Origin: Agapetus fuscipes
Taxonomy: Eukaryota > Arthropoda > Insecta > Trichoptera > Glossosomatidae
Assembly: GCA_951799405.1 (NCBI GenBank)
Contig: OX637338.1
Span: 6,572,001-6,636,000, forward strand
Direction of reading: 5' to 3'
DNA length: 64,000 nucleotides
The notes beneath the pieces were generated by a model, which did no database searches, was not told where the DNA came from, and saw nothing but the letters and a program-made list of their open reading frames with translations. Every line of letters begins with the position of its first letter. Positions within the stretch are counted from its first letter, which is position 1. Positions 3,194-38,704 of the stretch are shown here, in pieces. The translations under genes and the position numbers were made by a program.

Positions 3194-3664
3194 TGTTACG
3201 AAATTAGGGTTCAATTGTCTTCAAATTAAAAATACACAGGTCTTCTTCAATAGTTATTTATTTTACACAGTTACAAAATTTATTTTCACACTACTCTCTC
3301 GATTATTCCATTGGTTTCGGTTCACTGATCAGATGGCTTCGATGTGTTTGTTAGTCGCTATGATACTGGCCCGCTCTGCAGGCCATTCGCACCTTTATAC
3401 TCTTCAGAGCAGTATGATCCAGAACTAAAGTCGCCAGACGGTTCCAGAGTAATTATTACTTCTCGATGTTTCACGTACTACCTAGACACAACCAAAATCC
3501 TACCTACCAATGTAATACAGAATTCCTATAATTATAACAAGTACCTACTTAGCCTAGAGAATTCTACACTTATACACAATTATCGATCCTACCTACCTAT
3601 ACCTATGAGGACTCTTATAACTATAACTACCCATACTTATTTCAATATTTATATTTACATAACA
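3194..3664 (-). repeat. 5' LTR of the gypsy element (471 bp)
   Basis: Bounded by TGTTA at 3194 and TAACA at 3664 (TG...CA ends with 5-bp inverted repeat). It sits immediately outside the primer-binding site. On the minus strand it carries a TATA box near 3395 and an AATAAA near 3255, the expected U3-R-U5 order. Its outer end abuts the Penelope-like reading frame at 3665, so the element landed in that older element. The partner LTR is outside the window. Confidence 0.82.
3392..3402 (-). promoter_or_regulatory. TATA box in gypsy LTR
   Basis: GAGTATAAAGG on the minus strand. A CCAGTAT initiator-like site lies about 32 bases downstream, the right distance for transcription start at the U3/R border. 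Confidence 0.6.
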
Positions 3665-4816
3665 ATATGTAGGGGAAAACTCCGTCAGATCTACGATTTC
3701 TTTGTTCAGGTATTTAGCAATATTCATTGCTGGAGCATTAATGTAAGAAACCACAGGTCTTGCAGGGTTGTCGAGTTTATGCAATTTAATAAGGCCATAT
3801 AATAGAGTTGAAGATGGGTTTTTAACAATAAGTGTCCTTTTGAATGATAATTCAAGATTTTTGCTGTTCAAGTAGTTTTTGATTTTCTTCTGGAATGTAT
3901 TCGTGGGATCTTTCGATAGTGCCAAACATTTCTCTGTTATAATCACTTCCTCTAGCTTGTTGACATAATCAGTTTTGTTTAGAGCTACTATTGAATTGCC
4001 TTTATCTGCTCTAGTCAAAATCACATCATTATCCCTTGATTTTTGTTTAATATTTTTAATAGTTTTCAAAAGACGGTTATTTTTTGGTTCACAATTGGGA
4101 GTCCCAAATTCCTTGAACAAAAAATCAGCACATTTATGTTTCAGGAGAAACTTATTAGTATCATTAGCATCAGTTTGGTTACTGGTATTTATAGCTATTT
4201 CTAAATCACTACGAAGAACATCAAAACTTTTGGTATCTCTTTTGTCTGTTAGGTTAAACTTCGGACCGTATTCCAAAACTGAAGTTTCTGTTTTATCGAA
4301 TGTGATGTTAGATAAGTTTACAAACTTTTTATAAAAATTAACAACAGATGGTGGTTCACTACTTGACGTTTTGTTTATTTGAGCGGCTTTTAATTTGTTT
4401 ATCTTCTTATCCAACCTTTGTTTTGTATTTTTGGAAACAAAAGCCAATATCTCATATATCTTATCATCAAGTAATTGCCATTCAACTGGGTGTAAGGTTG
4501 ATGCAAGATTTGTGTGTAACATTTTTACATAAGTTCTCAGAATATTCATTTTAATGTATGCATTCTTTATTTCCATCTTAATCCACATCACTTTAGCTTT
4601 TTGGAGGATATTTACTGCTGTATTATTTTTTAAATTTGATTTTAGATTAATATAATTAGGAATAAGTTGTTGTTTTAAACAAGATTGGTTAAAGTACACT
4701 TTTAGAGCACAGGTTTTTATCTTTATTTTTAATTTTTTGTAATAATACACTTGTTTGGCTATACTAGCATCCATTAGATTTTGTAGGGTTTGTGTATTCA
4801 CACAGTGAAAATTCAT
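3665..4816 (-). pseudogene. Penelope-like element ORF, N-terminal part up to early RT motifs, truncated by gypsy insertion
   Basis: About 384 residues from the ATG at 4816. The N-terminal half is lysine-rich and helical. DVILTRADKGNSIVALNKTD (about residues 263-282) and YGLIKLHKLDNPARPVVSYI (about 335-354) are hallmark Penelope-like reverse transcriptase motifs. The catalytic YxDD and any GIY-YIG endonuclease are missing because the frame runs into the gypsy LTR at 3664; the extra residues beyond that are LTR sequence. The first 14 codons are also found at the other PLE ends (7341, 50636, 54793), so they belong to the repeated terminal module. Whether the rest of the PLE survives depends on sequence left of the window. 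Confidence 0.85.
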
Positions 4817-4977
4817 TTTTTTAAAATAAAGCTATTTTTTGTTTAACGTAGTTTATTTTCACAATAATATTTAATATTAAATATTATTGTGAAAATAAAC
4901 TACGTTAAACAAAAAATAGCTTTATTTTAAAAAAATGAATTTTCACTGTGTGAATACACAAACCCTACAAAATCTAA
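4774..4977. repeat. Perfect 204-bp palindrome at PLE terminus
   Basis: Two 102-bp arms, identical when one is reverse-complemented, meet with no spacer at 4875/4876 (ttaat|attaa). Each arm holds the PLE start codon and first 14 codons. The other PLE ends have a hammerhead-like segment at the centre; here it is missing. It could be a head-to-head PLE junction or an assembly chimera. Confidence 0.95.
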
Positions 4978-6010
4978 AAAAATATATGGTTAAACGCAAT
5001 TTCAGTGCACAATTTTGGCATACGATTAGAAAACCAAGCAATATCTCTTCATATCTTCATGACAAAAATATCTGCTAACTTTATTCTGATGCTCCACATA
5101 AGCTCAAGGAGTTTCAAAAGCAAATCAAGCTTCCAAATGTGAAACTCTTGAAAATGCTTCCTTCATAAGACCTTGACGCTCTTCCTACACAGCATGGTTC
5201 GGTGCCGGATCGGAAGGCTAGTTGTGTATGGAAACGTATATTATCTCTACTACGACTTGACCAGTGATCCCATTCATCCGTGACCGAAACTATTGACAAA
5301 CCGGACAAAAATTCCTCCTTGTGAAAAGACACCAATTCTTCTTTGCTCCGTTAGATACAGGGTATCGTGAGCTCAGTTTTTTCGCGACTCGGATAATTGT
5401 GGTTCTACTGTATTTGATTTTATATTTTTATCTTCCTTCCCATATGAATTTTATATTTTATTTGCTTTGACTTTATATAAGTTTCGCATTATTGGCGATA
5501 AAAAAGTGATGTAATTTGCTCAGTTGTCCGGGAAGGTCTAAGGTCGAATCAACAAAACAGCAAAAATACTCGTTGTGTCTAACAGGAGATATAATTCAAA
5601 TAAAACATTATACATATTCGTGCTTGTGGGCACTTGAAGCTTATTATCTATCTAGGTTTCAGATGTTTGCCAGGGTTAAATCAAAATAAAATAAAGCATT
5701 CATAAACAAACCTTCAATGGAACAAACACGGCAGCAGCTATAAATAGTAAAAGTAATGGAAAATTATATTTTTATTAAGATAATTGGATAGTGAAATAAT
5801 GTTTATAATGTAAAGAAGGTTGCATTTTGTATGTATGTATATATACCTAGACTTCGGATTTTAATTTATGTTCCATTTTTTGTTTACAACTCTCAGGTAA
5901 ATAATCTAAAATTGTTGAAAACATAAATGAAACATTAATAAAGTTCATTAAAATCCATGTCTTCGAGTCACCAGGTGTGAGTTCACGATAGTAGATCAAT
6001 ATCAAAAAAG
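4978..6010. other. No gene seen
   Basis: A 47-codon plus-strand frame starting at 4935 continues from the PLE arm to about 5078 but matches nothing I know. The rest is AT-rich DNA; 5160-5340 is slightly less AT-rich but not convincingly coding. Confidence 0.5.
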
Positions 6011-13320: not shown

Positions 13321-13490
13321 AAAAAAAATCTAAAGTTTGTGCATTCACGGATAAAGTCCGATAACGCTTACGCATTGTAAGCTCAAAGAAAAAAGTAAAA
13401 ATAAAACAATGTCATAAAACAGTTTTTTAAATTAAAAAAAAAACAATTTTATTGATTGTAGAGGCATTAACTTTGTAATCGTTCATCATT

Positions 13491-13639
13491 AATGATAAAT
13501 GAAAAACAGCTTTGTTTTCGATTACGTGAGTATTTATTTATCCACCTGATGATGCAAACGGATGTTTGCGAAACCGGTTGAGGTATATAAAAATAAATAC
13601 TCACGTAATCGAAAACAAAGCTGTTTTTCTTTTATCATT
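13491..13639. mobile_element. 149-bp inverted repeat carrying a hammerhead ribozyme
   Basis: Arms 13491-13539 and 13591-13639 are 48/49 complementary (for example gctttgttttcgattacg against cgtaatcgaaaacaaagc). The centre is the ribozyme core, so in RNA the arms would form an extended helix I. No coding sequence. I recognise no other copy in this window. The design resembles the terminal modules of Penelope-like elements. Confidence 0.8.
13542..13584 (+). ncRNA. Hammerhead ribozyme, consensus core
   Basis: CTGATGA (13546-13552), one extra T, helix II GCAAAC/GTTTGC (13554-13559 with 13564-13569) closed by GGAT, GAAA (13570-13573), then ACCGGT (13573-13578) for helix III. All core bases C3 U4 G5 A6 N7 G8 A9 and G12 A13 A14 are present. 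Helix III is too short to close alone but is self-complementary, as in hammerheads known to act as dimers. H17 is U13579, so cleavage is predicted between 13579 and 13580. Helix I is the flanking inverted repeat. The extra U after A9 is shared with the related motifs here and may affect activity. Confidence 0.65.
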
Positions 13640-14274
13640 AAAAAAAAAACAACTTACTACTATGATTATTATTTTCACAAACATTAATCCAGCCTTACAG
13701 CAACTGAGTATGGCTTAAGTTAGTGCGATTATGTTATAACCCAGCTCGCAGGAGGTTCTTAATAAAGATGGAAGATAGAGTCAAGCATACTTGATGTCAA
13801 AGTCAGAATATAATAAAATGAAAAGATATAAAAATATTTTTATTATGAGTATGAGTTTACATGAAAGTTGTGGGTACTAAGGTTTATCCTTCCGTAAAAT
13901 TTAATAGGATCATAAACGGGTCTTTAAACACACTTTTAAAAGCTTATTCTTGTACCCTTAATATTTCAAACAGATTTGCGCAACATAAAATTATCATTTC
14001 GTTTAAAAATATTTAAGAACTGCTTGTACTTTCTCAGTTCGGTCAGTCGATGTTATTCAGGCACAGCAAATTCGTGGTTCATTCGCAAATTATTAAATAG
14101 TTCTTGTAAAAATACACTTAGTATATACCTGATGACAAAATATCCTTCATGAACAATCTTAAATGTACATCTTACGTTACAAATGAGTATTTGTGCTTTA
14201 ATCTATAATCTAAGTCGCAAAGATATATTAAAGTCAAGCGTAAACAAAGAAAATTGCATTTTCTCTGTTTTCAT
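13640..14274. other. No gene seen
   Basis: Contains a weak trace of the ctattcaca MITE (about 14045-14110) and a short family B 3' end at 14196-14235 (-). Confidence 0.5.
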
Positions 14275-14765: not shown

Positions 14766-15348
14766 TGGGGGGGCAAGGTTGTAAATTTTGCCCCTCAGGG
14801 AGTATATAAATACAAAAAAAAGAACAAATAGAGAAACTGTAACGTATTCTCCAATGCGAGATATAAAATACACAGATCTAATGCCTATGGTATTTTCTCT
14901 CAACAAAAGCCAACCTTCAATAGGTGGCTTTCAATTTTGGACGACTTCCCGTACCAAAGAAGCGAAAATCAAAAGGACCACACTCACCTCAAATTGTGCT
15001 CTGGTCCAAGATGATGCTCGTTTCTCAGGATCCTATGGAGATGAGCTCTGTTCTCGAACTGCCACACTTGCAAGTTATATGTAAAACAAACCCACTCACT
15101 CACAGAATTTTAACGGTAAATTTCAAATCGCTCGCGAGACATATAAAAACGTGTCTACTTGCGAACACGACGGAAGTGGAAGTCCTCAAATCTTGCTAAT
15201 ATCACGTTGCTCAGATGTCAAAAAAGTTGATACCGACATCTTGCGATTTTTATCCGCACTTTTTTCAGATTGTGAAAGACCAACATGAAGTTCGCTTCTT
15301 AGACTATTAATTAAAATAAAAATAGATGACGCTATTCATGCGTCACCA
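14766..15348 (-). repeat. BEL/Pao 3' LTR
   Basis: TGG...CCA ends. Identical to the right LTR over most of its length; differences cluster in the first 65 bases (14766-14830), plus g/a at 15290. Confidence 0.95.
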
Positions 15349-15696: not shown

Positions 15697-17180
15697 CTAT
15701 TGTGTCGGCAATGGGTAAAGTTTGACGACCGGACGTTTGTAAAAACCTTGCTCAGTCTTGACTGTGGCTACTCGAATCACGCCATCATCCCCAGGGAAAA
15801 CCTTGGTGATGATTCCCAGAGGCCAGGACAAAGGAGGAGCGTCCTCTTGCCCAATCAGTACAACAGTCCCTACCTGAATTGCATTAACATCGGTTTGCCA
15901 TTTTTGTCTGACCTGCAAAGTGTGCAGGTATTCTACCTTCCATCGCTTCCAGTAAGATGACACGATTTGATCCAGGAGATTTTTACGCTGAGTAAGATTA
16001 ACTGGGGTGTCAGGTAGCTCAGAAGCAGGCAGATGTTTTAAGGGAGTGGACATCAAGAAATGCGCAGGAGTTATAACGTCAGGGTGAGGATCAGAACTGA
16101 TGACACTTAGTGGTCTAGAATTCATGATACTCTCGATTTGAGTCAACACCGTTTGCATCTCCTCATATGTGAGCAACTGATTCCCTATCACTCGATACAG
16201 ATGAGTTTTCAAACTCTTAATATTTGATTCCCATAAAGCTCCGAAGTGAGGAGCTCGAGGGGGAATCATTTTCCATTCTATTTTATACGCCTCAAGTTCT
16301 CGCTTCATTCGGACATTATGCTGTGAATTTTGTAAAAGATTATATATCTCATCTAATTGGGCACGAGCCCCAACAAAATTTGTACCGTTGTCCGAATACA
16401 TAAAGGAAACTGGCCCACGACGAGAGATAAAACGCTTAAATGCAGCTATAAAACAGGCACTTGACAGATCAGTTGCGAGCTCAATATGCACCGCCTTGGT
16501 CACTAGACAAACAAACAGGCAGATATATGCCTTTTGAGCATGTTGTCCGCGTCGTCGCGTAAGAAGTATTTTTAAAGGCCCAGCATAATCTACCCCCGTA
16601 TGCACAAATGCTTTAGCTTCTGTTATGCGACAGGCAGGCAAGTCCGCCATCTTTGGCGTAGGGTGAGACGGGTTCACTCGGAAGCAAATATTGCATTTAC
16701 GAGTTTGTGCTCGTATAACGGTTCTGGCATCCAATATCCAAAACCTTTGTCGTATGATAGACATCAAAAGTCCTGGACCGGTATGACAGTTGGATTCGTG
16801 AAAATGTTTAATTATTAAGTTCACCACTGAGTCATGTTTCGGAAGTAAAGCTGGATGTCTAGCTTCAAAGGGTAAATCAGACCGTGAAAGCCGACCTCCA
16901 ACTCGTAACGTACCTTCCTGATCCAGAAAAACCGATAAATTACGCAGTTTTTTCGATGGTAACTTGTTATCTTTTATCAACTTAATATCGTCCGAGAAAT
17001 GAACAGTTTGTATTGTCTGTATTAACTTAACTTCAGCATGGGACATGCATTCAATAAAATGCAACAGTGATTTAAATTTATTTATAAAGCGAAGGATGTA
17101 AACTGTAATTCGAATTAATTTATTCCACGAAGAAGTTCGTTGTGCTAAATCATATAAAATCATAGAGTCGACATGTACTT
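15697..17180 (-). CDS. pol: BEL/Pao integrase and C-terminal domain (3' part of split polyprotein)
   Basis: About 494 codons; the open frame's first few residues (to 17193) are read from the inserted element, not the retrotransposon. An HHCC-type zinc-binding region lies around residues 114-170 (HDSVVNLIIKHFH ... CNIC). The DDE integrase core shows GVDYAGP (about 198), YSDNGTNF (about 264) and LWESNIKS (about 318). The C-terminal 90 residues (VGTVVLIGQEDAPPLSWPLG...) are the BEL/Pao tail domain (DUF5641 type). Integrase inserts the reverse-transcribed DNA. Removing the insertion at 17181-19526 and one target copy would put this part in frame with 19535-23243. Confidence 0.92.
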
Positions 17181-19526
17181 TAAGGAGGGCCACTGATGTA
17201 TGGGGAAAAAAAAATTACGCTGAATTTTAATCTAAGAGTGAAATTATGTTGCTAAATGACGTAATTTTATTGTACAGAAAGTTTCATTAGAATTAAACAA
17301 CAACTTTTGTCTCCAAATCGACATTGAAATAATGAGAAATTGAAAAAAAACACGAAAAAAATATTTTTACATACTGACTTTAAACCCGATTTTTGAATTT
17401 TATTTCTCATGTAAAACAAATGTTTAAGGTATAAAATAACACATTTGAGAGAAAAAAGTAAATTACAGAAAGTAAAATTTTGTTATTGATAACGTAAAAA
17501 ATCGTTTTTTTTTCGAATTTTGGCCTGACACTGCGAGACGTTATTTTAGGTTAAATATTTTTTTCTAATGTTGATTTAAAAAAAAAACGTTGCAGAGACT
17601 TTTGTGTTGTTCTTCAAAGACATTTTGCTAGTTTTCGTATGATAAACGCAGATGAGATAGATCCATTTGCCCACCGTGTGCTGTGAAAAAAAATGAGATC
17701 TCCATCAGATGTCTTTTGAGATGTTAGTGGTTCAGATGTATTTTTCTGCCAATTTGTAATACCACAGTAAGTTGCAACAACAAAGTTAATTCATGGAACT
17801 TGTAAGAGTCAATTTTCCCACCTTGCATGATAAGAATTTTTAGAATCTTACGTGTATCTGCGAGGAGTTCACTTAGGTGTTTGTGAAGATTCGTAACTTC
17901 GCTATCAGTAAGTTTTCTGAATGAGCAAATCAACTATTTTTCACTTGGCGCAATTAATTATCATTTTAGGTTCTCCTGATGAATATTTTTAATTTAACTA
18001 AACTTCGATAAATGTCGGAAACCATCTTTGCAATAGGATGGCACTTACAAATATCATAAATGTAACTGAACACAGTTAAACTGAAAAGTAATCATTATTT
18101 TTGAGTATATGTATGTACCTTAAGAAGGTTACTGCTAAAAAAATAAGACATTATTATAAATCAAGCTAAAGTGTATGCTTGAACAACATAATTTGCCAAA
18201 TCAATAAGTTTTTTAAGGGATCCTAATTCCTAAGCTCTATGGCTCGCGGAATCCACCAAGCATAGGATTTTTTCCTGGAGTTTTATGGGCTAAGTTTATG
18301 TTTTCTAAGACAAACTTGTATAGATATAATTGATCTGTACTTAAATCTTGTGCGTATAAATCATATGGGTATTAAAGGTTTTTTGAAAACTAATTGAATG
18401 TTTCACATTTGATATCATGCAGAACTTCTGAAGTTATGAGTGCTGCCACTTTTCCCAAAATTCAATACCTGTAAAAAGTTTTTGCTAATGTAGAAACATC
18501 CAGTAAGCCTTTTTTTAAAAGATGGCGATGCAGCTTTGGAAATGATTCTTGTGAGACTGGCTGTGGAGATATACATACTTAATGATGATGGTATTAAAAT
18601 TCAATTCGCCCTTGGGGTGGCTGGAGCCACTAAACGGCGCCCAAAAGAAGAATAAGTCATCCAAATATATATTTGGTGTTTTATGTTATTTTAAGATTTA
18701 GGCGTGTTCTTTTACCATCAATGTATTTTGGTTCGATTATCTAAGCTTTTTTACGTAGATTATTTTTTCTATGATTTATTAGTTACTTTATAACGACTAT
18801 GGCTGTACCTGTTTCCAATAATAATTTTCCCTGAGGAAGCTTCACTCTTGTGCGAACACTCCGCAATCTCTATAAAAGGCGCATTGATTTATTTATTTAC
18901 ATTTAAAGGACAATAAATGTAAAACAGCACATTATTCATCATTTTCATCATAAGCTCAACAGTCTTGGGTGGGTTTTTTTTAAACAATATCAGTTGTTTT
19001 TGGAGATTTTGGCGTTTTTTCGTGATTTTCAAAACATTTATTGTCCAGTTGTGCAGTTACATTACTGCATTAAAAGATACATTTCATGACACTTCATGCT
19101 TTCTAAAAGAATAAAACAAATTTTACCAGTCACAGGGCATTGAAATAAGTTTTGTATTCAACTCAGAGTGACAACGCGCGGTCACAAATTCTTTGCAAAA
19201 TAGTGAAATTCGACGCTCTCTCTACTCCTCCTACTGCTTATTTAGTGAAAAAATAACTTGTTTATTTGTACTATTGGTGCGCATTACTATATTTTATGCA
19301 CAAAAATATAGAAATTACCGTAAAATCTTAATTCCTTATTGTATTATTAGCCCTCATTAAAAATGATAAAAATGGCATTTTTTCGAAACTTTGAGGCCGA
19401 TTTGGAGACAGATGATTAATACTTTTACGGAATTTTATTTTACACACGTAATTTGAACTTCTTTTGGCAACATATTCTTACTATTAGATGATTATTATCC
19501 AAAAAAAAAAAAATCGGCCCTCCTTA
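17181..19526. mobile_element. 2.35-kb TIR transposon inserted in the BEL/Pao polyprotein
   Basis: Ends are TAAGGAGGGCC and GGCCCTCCTTA, a perfect 11-bp inverted repeat. Flanks atgtactt (17173-17180) and atgtacta (19527-19534) are an 8-bp target duplication with one mismatch, fitting hAT or P superfamily size. Subterminal sequence tttgtctccaaatcg near 17310 is inverted at about 19395. The longest interior frame (17724-17933, minus) has no transposase motif I recognise, so I treat it as non-autonomous. It contains a LINE-tail insertion at 18605. Confidence 0.8.
18605..18653 (+). mobile_element. 3'-tail-only LINE insertion, third copy (diverged)
   Basis: cgcccttggggtggctggag with a perfect GTGGCT/AGCCAC stem; starts within a base or two of the other copies. 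Tail is ccaaaagaagaataa rather than clean (ATT)n. Confidence 0.6.
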
Positions 19527-19534
19527 ATGTACTA

Positions 19535-22500
19535 CAATGGCTGTCAGTACAGTTGCCTGTTCAGGAATTTCTAACGCATCGGACGAGGAGAATCTTTGAA
19601 TCGGCCATTCATCCGAAGGGCGTTGAAGCCACAGTGGACCATTCCACCATAAACTATGAGAAATTAATTGAGATGGTAACATACCACGTGAAACACAGTC
19701 GCTTGGGTTCTCGTCCCCTGAGATGTGATAAAAGTTCTGAGGGGGTAAATTCTCCTGACACTGAGCGACTCTATTTCCTACAAAAATTGACCAACGATGT
19801 GGAGAAGAGCAAATCCAAGCCAACGCAATCGTTGAATCAGAAAAAGCATATACATCAGTTATATGAATCCGATCACGATACATCTCGATCACAAGTTTTA
19901 ACATCTTTGACAATAAAACAGCAGCGCACAACTCTAAACGTGCTAATGTCGTAATCTTGGTGGGAGATACCTTAGATTTTGAGCACAACAACCTGACAGA
20001 AATATTTCCATCCATGTCAGTTGTATGTACATATATAACACAACCGTAACCATTCAGACTAGCATCACAAAAACCTACTAATAATACTTTGGTTGAGCTA
20101 GTCACACCGATGTGCCTAGGAATTTTTAAAGTAGCGAGCAACGGAAGTTCTTGTGTTATACTCGAAAAACGTCGAATTATAGCATCAGGCGGAGAGTCAT
20201 CCCAACCGATGTTGGCACGCCATAGCTCTTTGATGAGAAGCTTTGCAGCCAGTATAACTGGTGCGACTAAGCCCAAAACATCGAACAAACGAGCTACAAC
20301 TGACAAAATAGATCGCTTCGTGCATTTTTGCTGAGAGTCATTCGAAGTAAAGAAGAAATTATCCTTAACTGGATCCCAAGACAACCCTAATACTTTTAGA
20401 GTTACTCCTTTATCATCATCAAATTTTATGGAACCTCTATGTGAGTTAGGAAGACTATCTAATAGATAAGATGAATTGCTTGACCATTTTACCAGATCCA
20501 TGCCACCATACTTGAACAAAGCTACGAGATCTTTTGCCAGAGAAACAGCCGAAGCCTCATCTGCCACAGACTGAACCAGGTCATCCATATAAAACCTAGC
20601 TCCAGCTACTTTGGCGGCTTCTGGAAAATGTTCAGCCATGTCCGATGCCAACTGACGCACAGATCGCATGGCCAAGAAAGGACTACACTTTAATCCAAAT
20701 GGAACCCTATTAAATTGAAAGGTTCGAACTTTCTCCTTTTCAGAAAAACGAAATAATATTCTCAAATATCTACGGTGGTCAACAAATACACCAACCTGCA
20801 AATACATCTGCTGTACATCTGCTGTCATCGCGACAGGAAACAGCCTAAAATCTAATAAAAGGAGAAACAAATCAGCCTGTAAATTTGGCCCAGAATGTAG
20901 TACATCATTGAGTGACAACCCAGTATGCGTTTTCGCACTAGCATCTAAAACAATGCGAGGCATAGGTTTGTCTTGACGCACTACAGCGTGGTGAGGAATA
21001 TAATATCCATGTTCACCAATATCTGACTCTGCCACTTCAGAGAGATATCCCTTTTGAATGTAGTCATTTATTACCGAATTATAATTCTCCTGCAGACTCG
21101 GTAACTGCTTAAACTTTCTTTCTAATAACAAGAAACGCCGATATGCAGTATTTCGTGAGTTGCCCAAATTTTCAGGATTAGCACAAAAGGGTAGAGCAAC
21201 AGAGTAACGACCTACCTCGTCTTTAGTCACAGAAGATACAAAGGAGTTTTCGCACGCTGTCTCATCTGGACTTAAGAACTTTTTCACTGGGATTTCTTCC
21301 AACTCCCAGAACTTGTGTAATAATAAATCCGCATCTTTTACAGCTAATGCAGAAAAAGATTCGTGACAAATGTCTGCAGCTGAAACACTCTTTGGACAAT
21401 CTCCCATCAATACATAGCCAAAGGACGTCAATAATGCAGGTGGCGCTTTCGACTTTGACTCTATCATTTTTCCCAAATAAATAAAAGGGAATAGTTGTGC
21501 TCCCAACACAATGTCAACAACTCCAGGGACATTCCAGGATAAATCGGCCATTGAAATGTCCTTTAAATAAGTCATATCACTGTTATCAATGTACCTAGAA
21601 GGTAACTGATCCGTGATCTGATCCACCACTAACGCGTTAACCTTGTAAGTATTTTGAGGATTGTACCTCGATTGTATTTCAAAATTGACACATCCATGTA
21701 TCGGTCGTGCAGAAAGACCGATTCCTCTAATGACTGAATTATTTAGAGGAACAATATGTAAATTCATATTTCTACAACATTCTAATGTTATCAAATGGTT
21801 TTGAGAACCATTATCAACAAGACATCTAACTATCATCTTATTTTTCTTGCAATTCGACCATGCAAAAACCTGTGCCGTAGCCAACAGCACCGTGCTCGCA
21901 TTCACCCGAGCATTTGCACTTAAAGAAACCGAGGGCACACCCAACCCTTGCATATCATCACCTGAATGCGACAGCTGATGTCCCTGCTCAGCATTCTTGA
22001 CTACTCGTCTGGCCTTATTCTCATTGTCGTCAAAATGCAGAAGGGTATGATGCCCCTTATGACAAATTTGACAAGTTCCTGTCTCAGTACAATGAGACCA
22101 GTGGGCAACACTCAAACAACGAACGCAACCCCGTTTTGATTTAATAAATTCATACCTTTCCTTAGGAGAATAGCTCTTAAATTTCACACATTTATGTAAT
22201 TTATTATGGTCGTTTCGTTTACACAAAACGCAAGAGAGAGTGTCCCCAGTAGACACTCTACCACTTGCGAGGAACGCACGCCCACTTACAGATTTTGTCG
22301 TATTATTCCTCACGCGTGTATTCGAATGGCAAGCTTCGGAAACCGACTTCGATTCATTTACGTGCGATCTTTCCAAAATTTTGACCTGTTGTTGAACAAA
22401 ACTGATAAGATTCTGACAAGAAGGTATTTCGATGTCTTTCAGCGAAAGCTCGAAGGCCATAACTGTAGACGAATTCAATTTACGCAAAGCGCAATTAAAT

Positions 22501-23243
22501 AAAAGAAAATCTCCCACATCTGTAATACCTAATTGTTTTAATGCTGCAATGGAAGCAGCATACTTTTCAATAAAGCCATCAAGACAGGCAGCCGTGTGAT
22601 CGGCCTTCTTTAAATCAAGGATATTATTTATGTAATATGTTCCTAGCGCACGTTTATCCTGATATTTTTTAACAAGACTGTCCCAGACCACGTTATAGGT
22701 TTCCGCTGACGGTACAATTCCCGAAAATATGTTCGCTGCCTTTCCCATCAAGTTGCCTGTTAAATATTGCACTCTTTGGGCGTCTGACAACCCTGTATTT
22801 AGATGGACGTTTGCCTTAAAGGATTCAAAAAATCGTGACCAATTTTTTGGATTCCCATCAAACAAAGGAATTTGTATGGGAGGTAATTTCAACTCATATC
22901 TAGGCCCACTTTGAGTCGATACATGCGGTGTTTCGGTTTTTAAAATTCTTTCCCTAACATCCATTATTTTACTATAAAGTTCTTCAAAGGCCATAAGTGA
23001 TTGATAATTTACCTTTGCCTCTGGGTCTATCTCTAAAGAAAGTGCATTTATTTGATCTATCAAATCTTCGTACTTTTTAACCCAGCTTCCTGCATCCTTG
23101 GAAGCCGATAAAAAATTACTATTCTCTCTGGATGCAAAATTAGAAACATTTTTTCCTAGTTTATATAAATTATTTATTCTTTCAAAATAAACCTTTTGTT
23201 TCTCTTTCAATATAACCAAAGTTCTTGTTAAAGCATCCGCCAT
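19535..23243 (-). CDS. pol: BEL/Pao Gag-protease-RT-RNase H polyprotein (5' part)
   Basis: About 1236 codons from the ATG at 23243; the open frame closes a few bases inside the inserted element. Gag-like region (DUF1759 type, LFDGNPKNWSRFFESF) at about 115-270; cysteine-rich knuckles (CVLCKRNDHNKLHKC, CVRCLSVAHWSHC, CQICHKGHH) about 335-400; Pao-type aspartic protease with LVDNGSQNHLI near 470, where the usual D-S/T-G reads D-N-G; RT with MTADVQQMYLQVGV and the catalytic FYMDDL at about 885; RNase H start FCDASLNGYGC near 1056. Makes the particle protein and copies RNA into DNA. Frame intact over its full length. Confidence 0.93.
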
Positions 23244-23788: not shown

Positions 23789-24370
23789 TGGAGGGGCAAG
23801 TTGTAAGTTTTGCCCCTCAGGGGGGTATATAAATACAAAAAAACAACAAATAGAGAAACTGTAACGTATTCTCCAATGCGAGATATAAAATACACAGATC
23901 TAATGCCTATGGTATTTTCTCTCAACAAAAGCCAACCTTCAATAGGTGGCTTTCAATTTTGGACGACTTCCCGTACCAAAGAAGCGAAAATCAAAAGGAC
24001 CACACTCACCTCAAATTGTGCTCTGGTCCAAGATGATGCTCGTTTCTCAGGATCCTATGGAGATGAGCTCTGTTCTCGAACTGCCACACTTGCAAGTTAT
24101 ATGTAAAACAAACCCACTCACTCACAGAATTTTAACGGTAAATTTCAAATCGCTCGCGAGACATATAAAAACGTGTCTACTTGCGAACACGACGGAAGTG
24201 GAAGTCCTCAAATCTTGCTAATATCACGTTGCTCAGATGTCAAAAAAGTTGATACCGACATCTTGCGATTTTTATCCGCACTTTTTTCAGATTGTGAAAG
24301 ACCAACATGAAATTCGCTTCTTAGACTATTAATTAAAATAAAAATAGATGACGCTATTCATGCGTCACCA
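23789..24370 (-). repeat. BEL/Pao 5' LTR
   Basis: 582 bp, TGG...CCA. Differs from the 3' LTR mainly within 23789-23855. Confidence 0.95.
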
Positions 24371-37649: not shown

Positions 37650-38490
37650 GCACGTTTAAACTCAACCATAGCGTTAATCAAATGCTGTAGCCACTAACAT
37701 AGCACGTCCAAGCGACTATTTAATTTCCCTACATTTTTTTGCGTAACTCTTAAACGTGAAATGCTACCCTTAACGTTTAAACTCAACCATAAAGTTTACC
37801 AAATGTTGTAGACACTAAAATAGCACGTCCAAGCGAGCATTTAATTTCCATACATTTTTGATAAAACGCTTAAACATGTAGTGAAATACTTTACGTTGAA
37901 ACTTAACCAGAACGTGTACCACATGTTGTAGCCACTGAAATAGCACGTCAAAGCGAGCGTTTAATTTCCCTACATTTTTTTGCGTTACTCTTAAACGTGA
38001 AATGCTACCCTTAACGTTTAAACTCAACCATAAAGTTTACCAAATGTTGTAGACACTAAAATAGCACGTCCAAGCGAGCATTTAATTTCCATACATTTTT
38101 GATAAAACGCTTAAACATGTAGTGAAATACTTTACGTTGAAACTTAACCAGAACGTGTACCACATGTTGTAGCCACTGAAATAGCACGTCAAAGCGAGCG
38201 TTTAATTTCCCTACATTTTTTGTTTAACTCTTAAACGTGAAAGGCTGTACTTTATGTTTACACTCAACCATAAAGTTTACCAAATGTTGTAGACACTAAA
38301 ATAGCACGTCCAAGCGTGCATTTAATTTTCATACATTTTTGGTAAAACGCTTAAACGTAAAATGCTATACTAACTTTTAAACTCAATCATAAAGTTTACC
38401 TAATTCTGTAGCCACTAAAATAGCACGTCCAAGCGAACGTTTAATTTTCATACATTTTTGTTGCAACGATTAAACGTAAAGTGCTTTACT
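37650..38490. repeat. 120-bp satellite, seven monomers with a 241-bp dimer repeat
   Basis: Monomers start near 37652, 37773, 37893, 38014, 38134, 38254 and 38373. Each reads acgtttaaactcaacc ... tagcacgtccaagcg ... tacattttt ... taaacgt. 37773-38013 and 38014-38254 are identical for over 210 bases, so a two-monomer unit has been copied. The monomer matches the inner part of the dispersed family P MITE. Confidence 0.93.
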
Positions 38491-38704
38491 TGGTGTCCTG
38501 ATTTACTTGCTATTCTCTAGAAACATTGTATGCTCCTACATAGTGATCTACATTATTGATTAGTTAATGACACACCATTCGGTACTTTCATGTTTAAATA
38601 TAATGCATGGATACGTATCTATAATAAAACGAATAGACTTCAGATAGTTATCTCTCAATAGGTTATTGCGTTTAATAGAACCGATTTAAATTATGTGTAA
38701 ATGT

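What the first reader, a model, noticed from the sequence alone, without database searches (positions are those of the whole stretch)
13491..13639. Consensus hammerhead ribozyme inside a 149-bp near-perfect inverted repeat
All invariant core bases are present and helix II is perfect (6 bp). Helix I would be extended by 49-bp arms (48/49 complementary). Helix III, ACCGGT, is self-complementary and too short to work alone, which points to dimer action as known for newt satellite and Penelope-type hammerheads. It has no coding sequence, so it could be a tiny ribozyme-only mobile element.
Basis: partly seen in the sequence, partly recalled or inferred. Interest (0 to 1): 0.82.

Follow-up and report, generated by a model that had tools for sequence, protein, structure and literature searches.

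The report
Mini insertion from a ribozyme-carrying retrotransposon
The hammerhead inside an inverted repeat is most likely a scrap left by a Penelope-type retrotransposon whose RNA was copied from both ends of a cut in the chromosome; it is not a mobile element of its own, but such scraps record how these elements insert.

Summary
The inverted repeat and hammerhead-like core are real, with two corrections: an extra U sits between the CUGAUGA box and helix II, and this copy's helix I has an A-A mismatch where most relatives have CCAC/GUGG. The insert is larger than stated: 13447-13636, flanked by a 16-bp duplication.

It belongs to a dispersed repeat family (40 copies scored of 1897 first-look candidates). 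The unit is the pseudo-LTR (pLTR) of a Penelope-like element (PLE): in 15 copies the same ORF-like sequence lies directly upstream. A related RT+GIY-YIG copy, L066, has the same layout with an ORF inside.

Two fixed outer ends ~43 nt apart resemble the two internal reverse-transcription start sites shown in vitro for a lizard PLE (PMC11167929). Of 55 copies with both arms within 400 bp, 53 have exactly one tail and none has two. Apex junctions differ: 37 distinct of 40, so mini-copies do not breed from one another. Best reading: two antisense cDNAs, one from each side of the break, joined head to head.

The parts
13431..13446 (.). Left target-site duplication ATTAAAAAAAAAACAA
   Evidence: Exact 16-bp repeat at both edges of the insert; low complexity, but 29 of 40 copies have duplications of 11-16 bp at the same two edges (my reading)
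13447..13489 (-). Tail, 43 nt, read on the minus strand; ends at the distal start site; contains ATGAACGATTACAAAGTTAATGCC.., probably the first codons of the PLE ORF (MNDYKVNASTINK)
   Evidence: Present on one outer end only; translation
13490..13539 (-). Antisense pLTR arm
13530..13539 (.). Apex junction: 10 nt that fit both arms (GTATTTATTT)
   Evidence: row L048
13540..13636 (+). Sense pLTR arm, without tail; ends at the proximal start site
13542..13583 (+). Minimal hammerhead-like core: helix I CCAC/GAGG, CUGAUGA, extra U, helix II GCAAAC/GUUUGC, GAA, ACCGGU, U17
13553..13553 (+). Extra U between the CUGAUGA box and helix II
   Evidence: also in all 8 scan hits at the GIY-YIG loci
13579..13580 (+). 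Predicted hammerhead cleavage point, between these two bases
   Evidence: Inferred from the motif; not tested
13637..13652 (.). Right target-site duplication ATTAAAAAAAAAACAA

Best explanation
A short, ORF-less insertion of a Penelope-like element. Shown: the unit is a pLTR of a PLE family in this genome, mostly flanked by target duplications, with two fixed outer ends (with and without a ~43-nt tail) and a variable head-to-head apex near the hammerhead. Inferred: PLE protein cut both strands of AT-rich target DNA; each DNA end primed reverse transcription at an internal site of PLE RNA, one at the distal site (tail), the other at the proximal site just before the probable ORF ATG; the two antisense cDNAs ran a short way towards the RNA 5' end and were joined through microhomology or with filler. 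Because the start sites lie only about 60 and 105 nt downstream of the hammerhead cut, cDNAs that stop near the hammerhead hold no ORF; only templates with an ORF upstream of the start site (read-through or tandem RNA) can give coding copies.
For: 40 copies scored, 87-100% identical in the main match. Duplications of 11-16 bp at both edges in 29 of 40 (my reading). 53 of 55 copies with both arms within 400 bp have exactly one tail; the other two (L089, L099) have a tail on one arm and an unclear end on the other. L066: RVT_1 and GIY-YIG in one 480-codon frame, hammerheads in inverted and direct pLTR, 14-bp duplication and inverted arms, tail at one end only (read). ORF-like 3' end upstream of the unit shared by L100 and 14 other copies; weak tblastn trace of GIY-YIG there in L065 (35% over 57 residues, E 0.002). 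8 PLE-type cores in 6 of 16 GIY-YIG loci against 0.005 expected per shuffle. Two start sites and cutting and extension of both strands in vitro for a lizard PLE (PMC11167929). Arms within a copy agree far better than arms of different copies (18 of 928 mismatches against 6.2%; 0 of 5000 permutations).
Against: 11 of 40 copies gave no duplication of 10 bp or more at both edges. No coding copy of this exact subfamily was found; the protein and tail searches did not complete. The upstream ORF was recognised by eye and one weak hit. In vitro the lizard enzyme showed no difference in start site between strands, whereas here one end has the tail and the other not. Microhomology at many apexes is also what fold-back priming would use.
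Confidence: 0.85

Rival explanations
1. Fold-back self-priming: one cDNA folds on itself at its 3' end and is copied back, giving the hairpin (proposed for rotifer Penelope).
For: Near-identical arms, microhomology up to 12 nt at some apexes, and the 278-bp palindrome without spacer in L068. PMC3846280 favours it (passages).
Against: A fold-back copy should repeat the same outer end on both arms, yet 53 of 55 two-armed copies have one tail only. Some apexes carry up to 17 nt of filler.
Confidence: 0.1
2. A self-propagating non-autonomous element (retrozyme-like or SINE-like): the hairpin unit itself is transcribed and re-inserted.
For: Hammerhead, small size, many copies, duplications.
Against: 37 distinct apex junctions in 40 copies; a breeding unit would pass on its junction. 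The three shared ones are one duplicated locus (L039/L040) and two pairs at the same microhomology. No same-strand second copy listed in 29 loci.
Confidence: 0.03
3. A DNA-transposon MITE with terminal inverted repeats and a chance hammerhead.
For: Near-perfect inverted repeat, small, dispersed.
Against: The outer ends are not mirror images (tail on one), duplication length varies from 11 to 16 bp, the apex varies, and a copy with RT and GIY-YIG has the same layout.
Confidence: 0.01

Closest known systems
Penelope/Poseidon-type PLEs; Anolis PAc (PMC11167929, parts 1-2 of 4 read)
   Same: Hammerhead near the ORF start, two internal reverse-transcription start sites near the ORF 5' end that explain an optional tail, AT-rich targets, cutting and extension of both strands.
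   Different: Here the ORF is missing. The tail seems to begin at the ORF ATG, whereas the PAc ORF begins at stem II. In these copies the two ends use different start sites; PAc showed no strand difference in vitro.
Rotifer Penelope with inverted pLTRs (PMC3846280, passages read)
   Same: Head-to-head inverted pLTRs, an optional ~31-bp tail on one of them, short duplications, solo pLTRs.
   Different: Those described are mostly ORF-bearing and few; this family has many ORF-less pairs with differing apexes.
Minimal type I hammerheads of PLEs and dispersed in animal genomes (known here only through passages of reviews PMC7761336 and PMC6155905; the primary papers Cervera 2014 and Lunse 2017 are not held)
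   Different: All 8 scan hits at the GIY-YIG loci have a U between CUGANGA and helix II; whether the primary papers report this could not be checked.
Animal retrozymes (PMC7229834, passages read)
   Same: Short hammerhead units with duplications.
   Different: Retrozymes are tandem repeats of ~150-450 bp; these are single inverted inserts.

Membership tests
Penelope-like element | One ORF with RT and GIY-YIG domains | tested here: not met
   Not in this ORF-less copy. Met in the related copy L066 (RVT_1 8.4e-13, GIY-YIG 4.2e-6). The claim is an insertion product of a PLE, not a complete PLE.
Penelope-like element | pLTRs, often one inverted, with the same layout as an ORF-bearing copy | tested here: met
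   Window insert against L066
Penelope-like element | Optional 30-40 bp tail on one pLTR | tested here: met
   43-nt tail at one end in 53 of 55 two-armed copies; none with two
Penelope-like element | Short target-site duplication | tested here: met
   16 bp here; 11-16 bp in 29 of 40 copies
Penelope-like element | Reverse transcription from internal RNA sites | not testable with these tools
   Only inferred from the fixed outer ends
Hammerhead ribozyme | Core CUGANGA..GAA with helices I, II, III | tested here: inconclusive
   Core letters present; extra U, helix I mismatch in this copy; 21 of 40 copies pass a scan that requires helix I of at least 3 bp
Hammerhead ribozyme | Match to an Rfam hammerhead model | tested here: not met
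   None in the window, L011 or L066
Hammerhead ribozyme | Self-cleavage | not testable with these tools
   Needs an in vitro assay
Animal retrozyme | Tandem repeats of a hammerhead unit | tested here: not met
   No same-strand second copy listed in the 29 loci (about 1.5 kb flank each side)
MITE | Symmetric terminal inverted repeats and fixed-length duplication | tested here: not met
   One-sided tail and duplications of 11-16 bp

The most novel reading that the evidence does not exclude
These mini-inserts are a natural record showing that, in vivo, Penelope integration uses two different internal start sites, one on each side of the break. That points to an asymmetric complex of two RTs on two RNAs (or RNA dimers) and away from self-priming. 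The copied RNA had not been cut by its hammerhead: in all 40 copies of the first sample (drawn with a query that contains the hammerhead) the sense arm crosses the predicted cut, and antisense-arm ends are not enriched there. The hammerhead would then act elsewhere in the life cycle.
Probability: 0.45. Interest if true: 0.7.

Novelty: new member of a known kind. Interest (0 to 1): 0.45.

Why it matters
[quoted passage not shown] A genome with many short inserts that keep both start points and both cDNA ends lets these questions be approached by junction mapping. It also offers an origin for at least some hammerhead motifs found dispersed in non-coding animal DNA.

Tried and rejected
Rfam at gathering score (window) and at E up to 10 (window 13400-13720, L066 3300-5450, L011 385-450) found no hammerhead. 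The microRNA and leader matches follow the long hairpin and lie below their gathering scores.

A spike of cDNA ends at the hammerhead cut (run-off on cleaved RNA) was looked for and not seen. Of 40 antisense-arm ends, 6 lie within 4 nt of the cut; my arithmetic for an even spread over the observed range (-23 to +34) is 6.2. Thirteen antisense arms cross the cut. All 40 sense arms cross it, but the query itself contained the hammerhead, so that count is biased.

Sense-arm 5' ends: 36 of 54 copies with an intact hammerhead 5' half end within 19 nt upstream of helix I; 18 reach further. This fits an RNA 5' end there but is not a clean spike; it stays a lead.

I first read the ATG in the hammerhead as the ORF start (note). 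Other subfamilies have stops between it and the tail (read by eye), so the ATG at the start of the tail is the better candidate.

Rows dropped: L040 (same flanks as L039). From one search's 40 places, L071 (the query's own place) and 8 others not fetched were not used; one of those 8 matched another repeat. L090 and L094 are two-armed but with arms more than 400 bp apart, and are not in the 55.

An unbiased sample drawn with the tail alone, and a search for a coding copy of this subfamily, could not be run because the genome search did not complete. A paper search for 'Penelope' with 'twin priming' listed 3 papers, none with Penelope in title or abstract.

Full report
What is there. The region holds a near-perfect inverted repeat (51-nt arms, 98% complementary, 51 nt apart) and a hammerhead-like core at 13542-13583. 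It missed a U (13553) between CUGAUGA and helix II, and an A-A mismatch in core-proximal helix I (CCAC/GAGG). Rfam finds no hammerhead. The core is unlikely to be chance: 100 Markov-random 64-kb sequences gave 3 looser hits in all, and none with helix II of 5 or more pairs plus a helix I pair.

It is a dispersed repeat. The window lies in an unnamed 618-Mb genome of 148 contigs. A search with window:13440-13660 scored 40 copies of 1897 first-look candidates, 87-100% identical in the main match. I fetched all 40 with flanks and aligned them. They share a left end TTTTATTGATTGTAGAGG (with small changes) and a right end near TTTTATC(ATTA). By my reading, 29 of 40 have duplications of 11-16 bp at both edges; 11 do not. 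For the window copy this gives an insert at 13447-13636.

Anatomy. Read in the hammerhead-sense direction the unit is: a short AT-rich leader, CCAC, CUGAYGA, U, helix II, GAA, ACCGGU, U, then GUGG and about 60 nt to a proximal end, then a 43-nt tail to a distal end. The window insert holds tail plus pLTR in antisense, flips at an apex, and runs back in sense to the proximal end. I classed 71 copies: the 40, and 31 (29 loci and 2 fetched stretches; L071 is the query itself and 8 of the 40 places were not fetched). Fifty-five have both arms within 400 bp: 53 have exactly one tail, 2 (L089, L099) a tail on one arm and an unclear end on the other, none two tails. Two more have a possible partner arm further away, and 14 show one arm, with tail. 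L039/L040 and L085/L086 are duplicates, so the independent number is slightly lower.

What it belongs to. GIY-YIG (PF01541) matched at 16 places. One (L051, extended as L066) has a 480-codon frame with RVT_1 and GIY-YIG, flanked by inverted arms (3406-3696 and 5076-5366) and a 14-bp duplication (3343-3356, 5373-5386). It has a hammerhead with ACAC/GUGU helix I in each pLTR and, as read, a tail at the left end only. That is the window insert's layout with an ORF inside. A search with the window-type unit of L065 found copies in which ORF-like sequence lies directly upstream of the hammerhead: L100 and 14 others share it for 32-192 nt. Its frame, read by eye, is kept between several copies. L065 shows a weak GIY-YIG trace there (35% identity, E 0.002). 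The tails translate as MNDYKVNASTINK (window family), MNFHEVTAKNLD (L066) and MEFHNVSPKQFEK (L068, read by eye; the script cut that tail one base late and printed another frame). They look alike and probably start the ORF.

Hammerhead cores. The stricter scan hits 8 times in 6 of the 16 GIY-YIG loci, all with the extra U, against 0.005 expected per shuffle. One of the 8 (L050) is a window-family unit. Helix letters differ between families while still pairing, but the scan demanded pairing, so this is not independent covariation evidence. Of the 40 copies, 21 pass it; the window copy does not.

A second PLE family shows the same. L068 holds a 278-bp palindrome without spacer (113-390), 99% complementary, with a hammerhead in each arm. 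Read by eye it has a 12-bp flanking repeat (106-117, 431-442) and about 40 nt of tail on the right side only.

How it most likely arose. In vitro the lizard PLE protein cuts and extends both DNA strands and starts reverse transcription at two adjacent internal RNA sites, which explain the tail (PMC11167929, parts 1-2 of 4). The window insert fits two such cDNAs, one from each side of the break, joined head to head. The apex differs between copies: 37 distinct combinations of arm ends and gap or overlap among 40, with overlaps up to 12 nt and fillers up to 17 nt. Within a copy the arms agree far better than arms of different copies (18 of 928 against 6.2%; 39 copies; 0 of 5000 permutations), so both came from one RNA source, or one arm was copied from the other. 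Fold-back self-priming, favoured for rotifer Penelope (PMC3846280, passages), should give the same outer end on both arms and does not explain the one-tail rule, though it could explain L068. Against a simple transfer of the in vitro result, the lizard enzyme showed no start-site difference between strands.

The hammerhead's part. In all 40 copies the sense arm crosses the predicted cut, and antisense-arm ends show no excess there (6 of 40 within 4 nt). This fits uncleaved RNA as template, as reported in vitro, but the sample was drawn with a query that contains the hammerhead. In 36 of 54 copies the sense arm ends within 19 nt upstream of helix I, perhaps the RNA 5' end. Reverse transcription starting so near such an end would yield only pLTR fragments, which would explain ORF-less inserts; this step is inference.

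Limits. The genome search was mostly unreachable, so no unbiased sample and no coding copy of this subfamily were obtained. Copy number is known only as first-look candidates. The two primary papers on PLE hammerheads were not held.

Noticed in passing
window, minus strand, core starting at + coordinate 26697: A second, degenerate hammerhead-like core with the same extra U (CTGAAGA T GACTA TAT TAGTC GAA AACGTTA), without long inverted arms; perhaps an old PLE remnant.
   Followed up: partly
L068:113-390: 278-bp palindrome without spacer, a hammerhead in each arm, from another PLE family.
   Followed up: partly
L049:1085-1268, L053 near 3137, L065 near 8341: Looser hammerhead-like cores where the base after CUGANGA is C or A, not U (read by eye); they fail the helix rules of the stricter scan.
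   Followed up: no
L039 and L040 (contigs C28 and C21); L085 and L086 (contig C14): Pairs of copies with identical or near-identical flanks: a later duplication or an assembly duplicate, not separate insertions.
   Followed up: no
window 4774-4977: Perfect palindrome, two 102-nt arms with no spacer; relatives of the arm recur in the window.
   Followed up: no
window 37650-38491: Head-to-tail array of a ~121-bp unit, 7 copies.
   Followed up: no
window 15697-23243, minus strand: Two long ORFs that look like a BEL/Pao-type retrotransposon polyprotein (name recalled, no family search run); a 300-nt direct repeat, 100% identical at 14815-15114 and 23837-24136, may be its LTRs.
   Followed up: no
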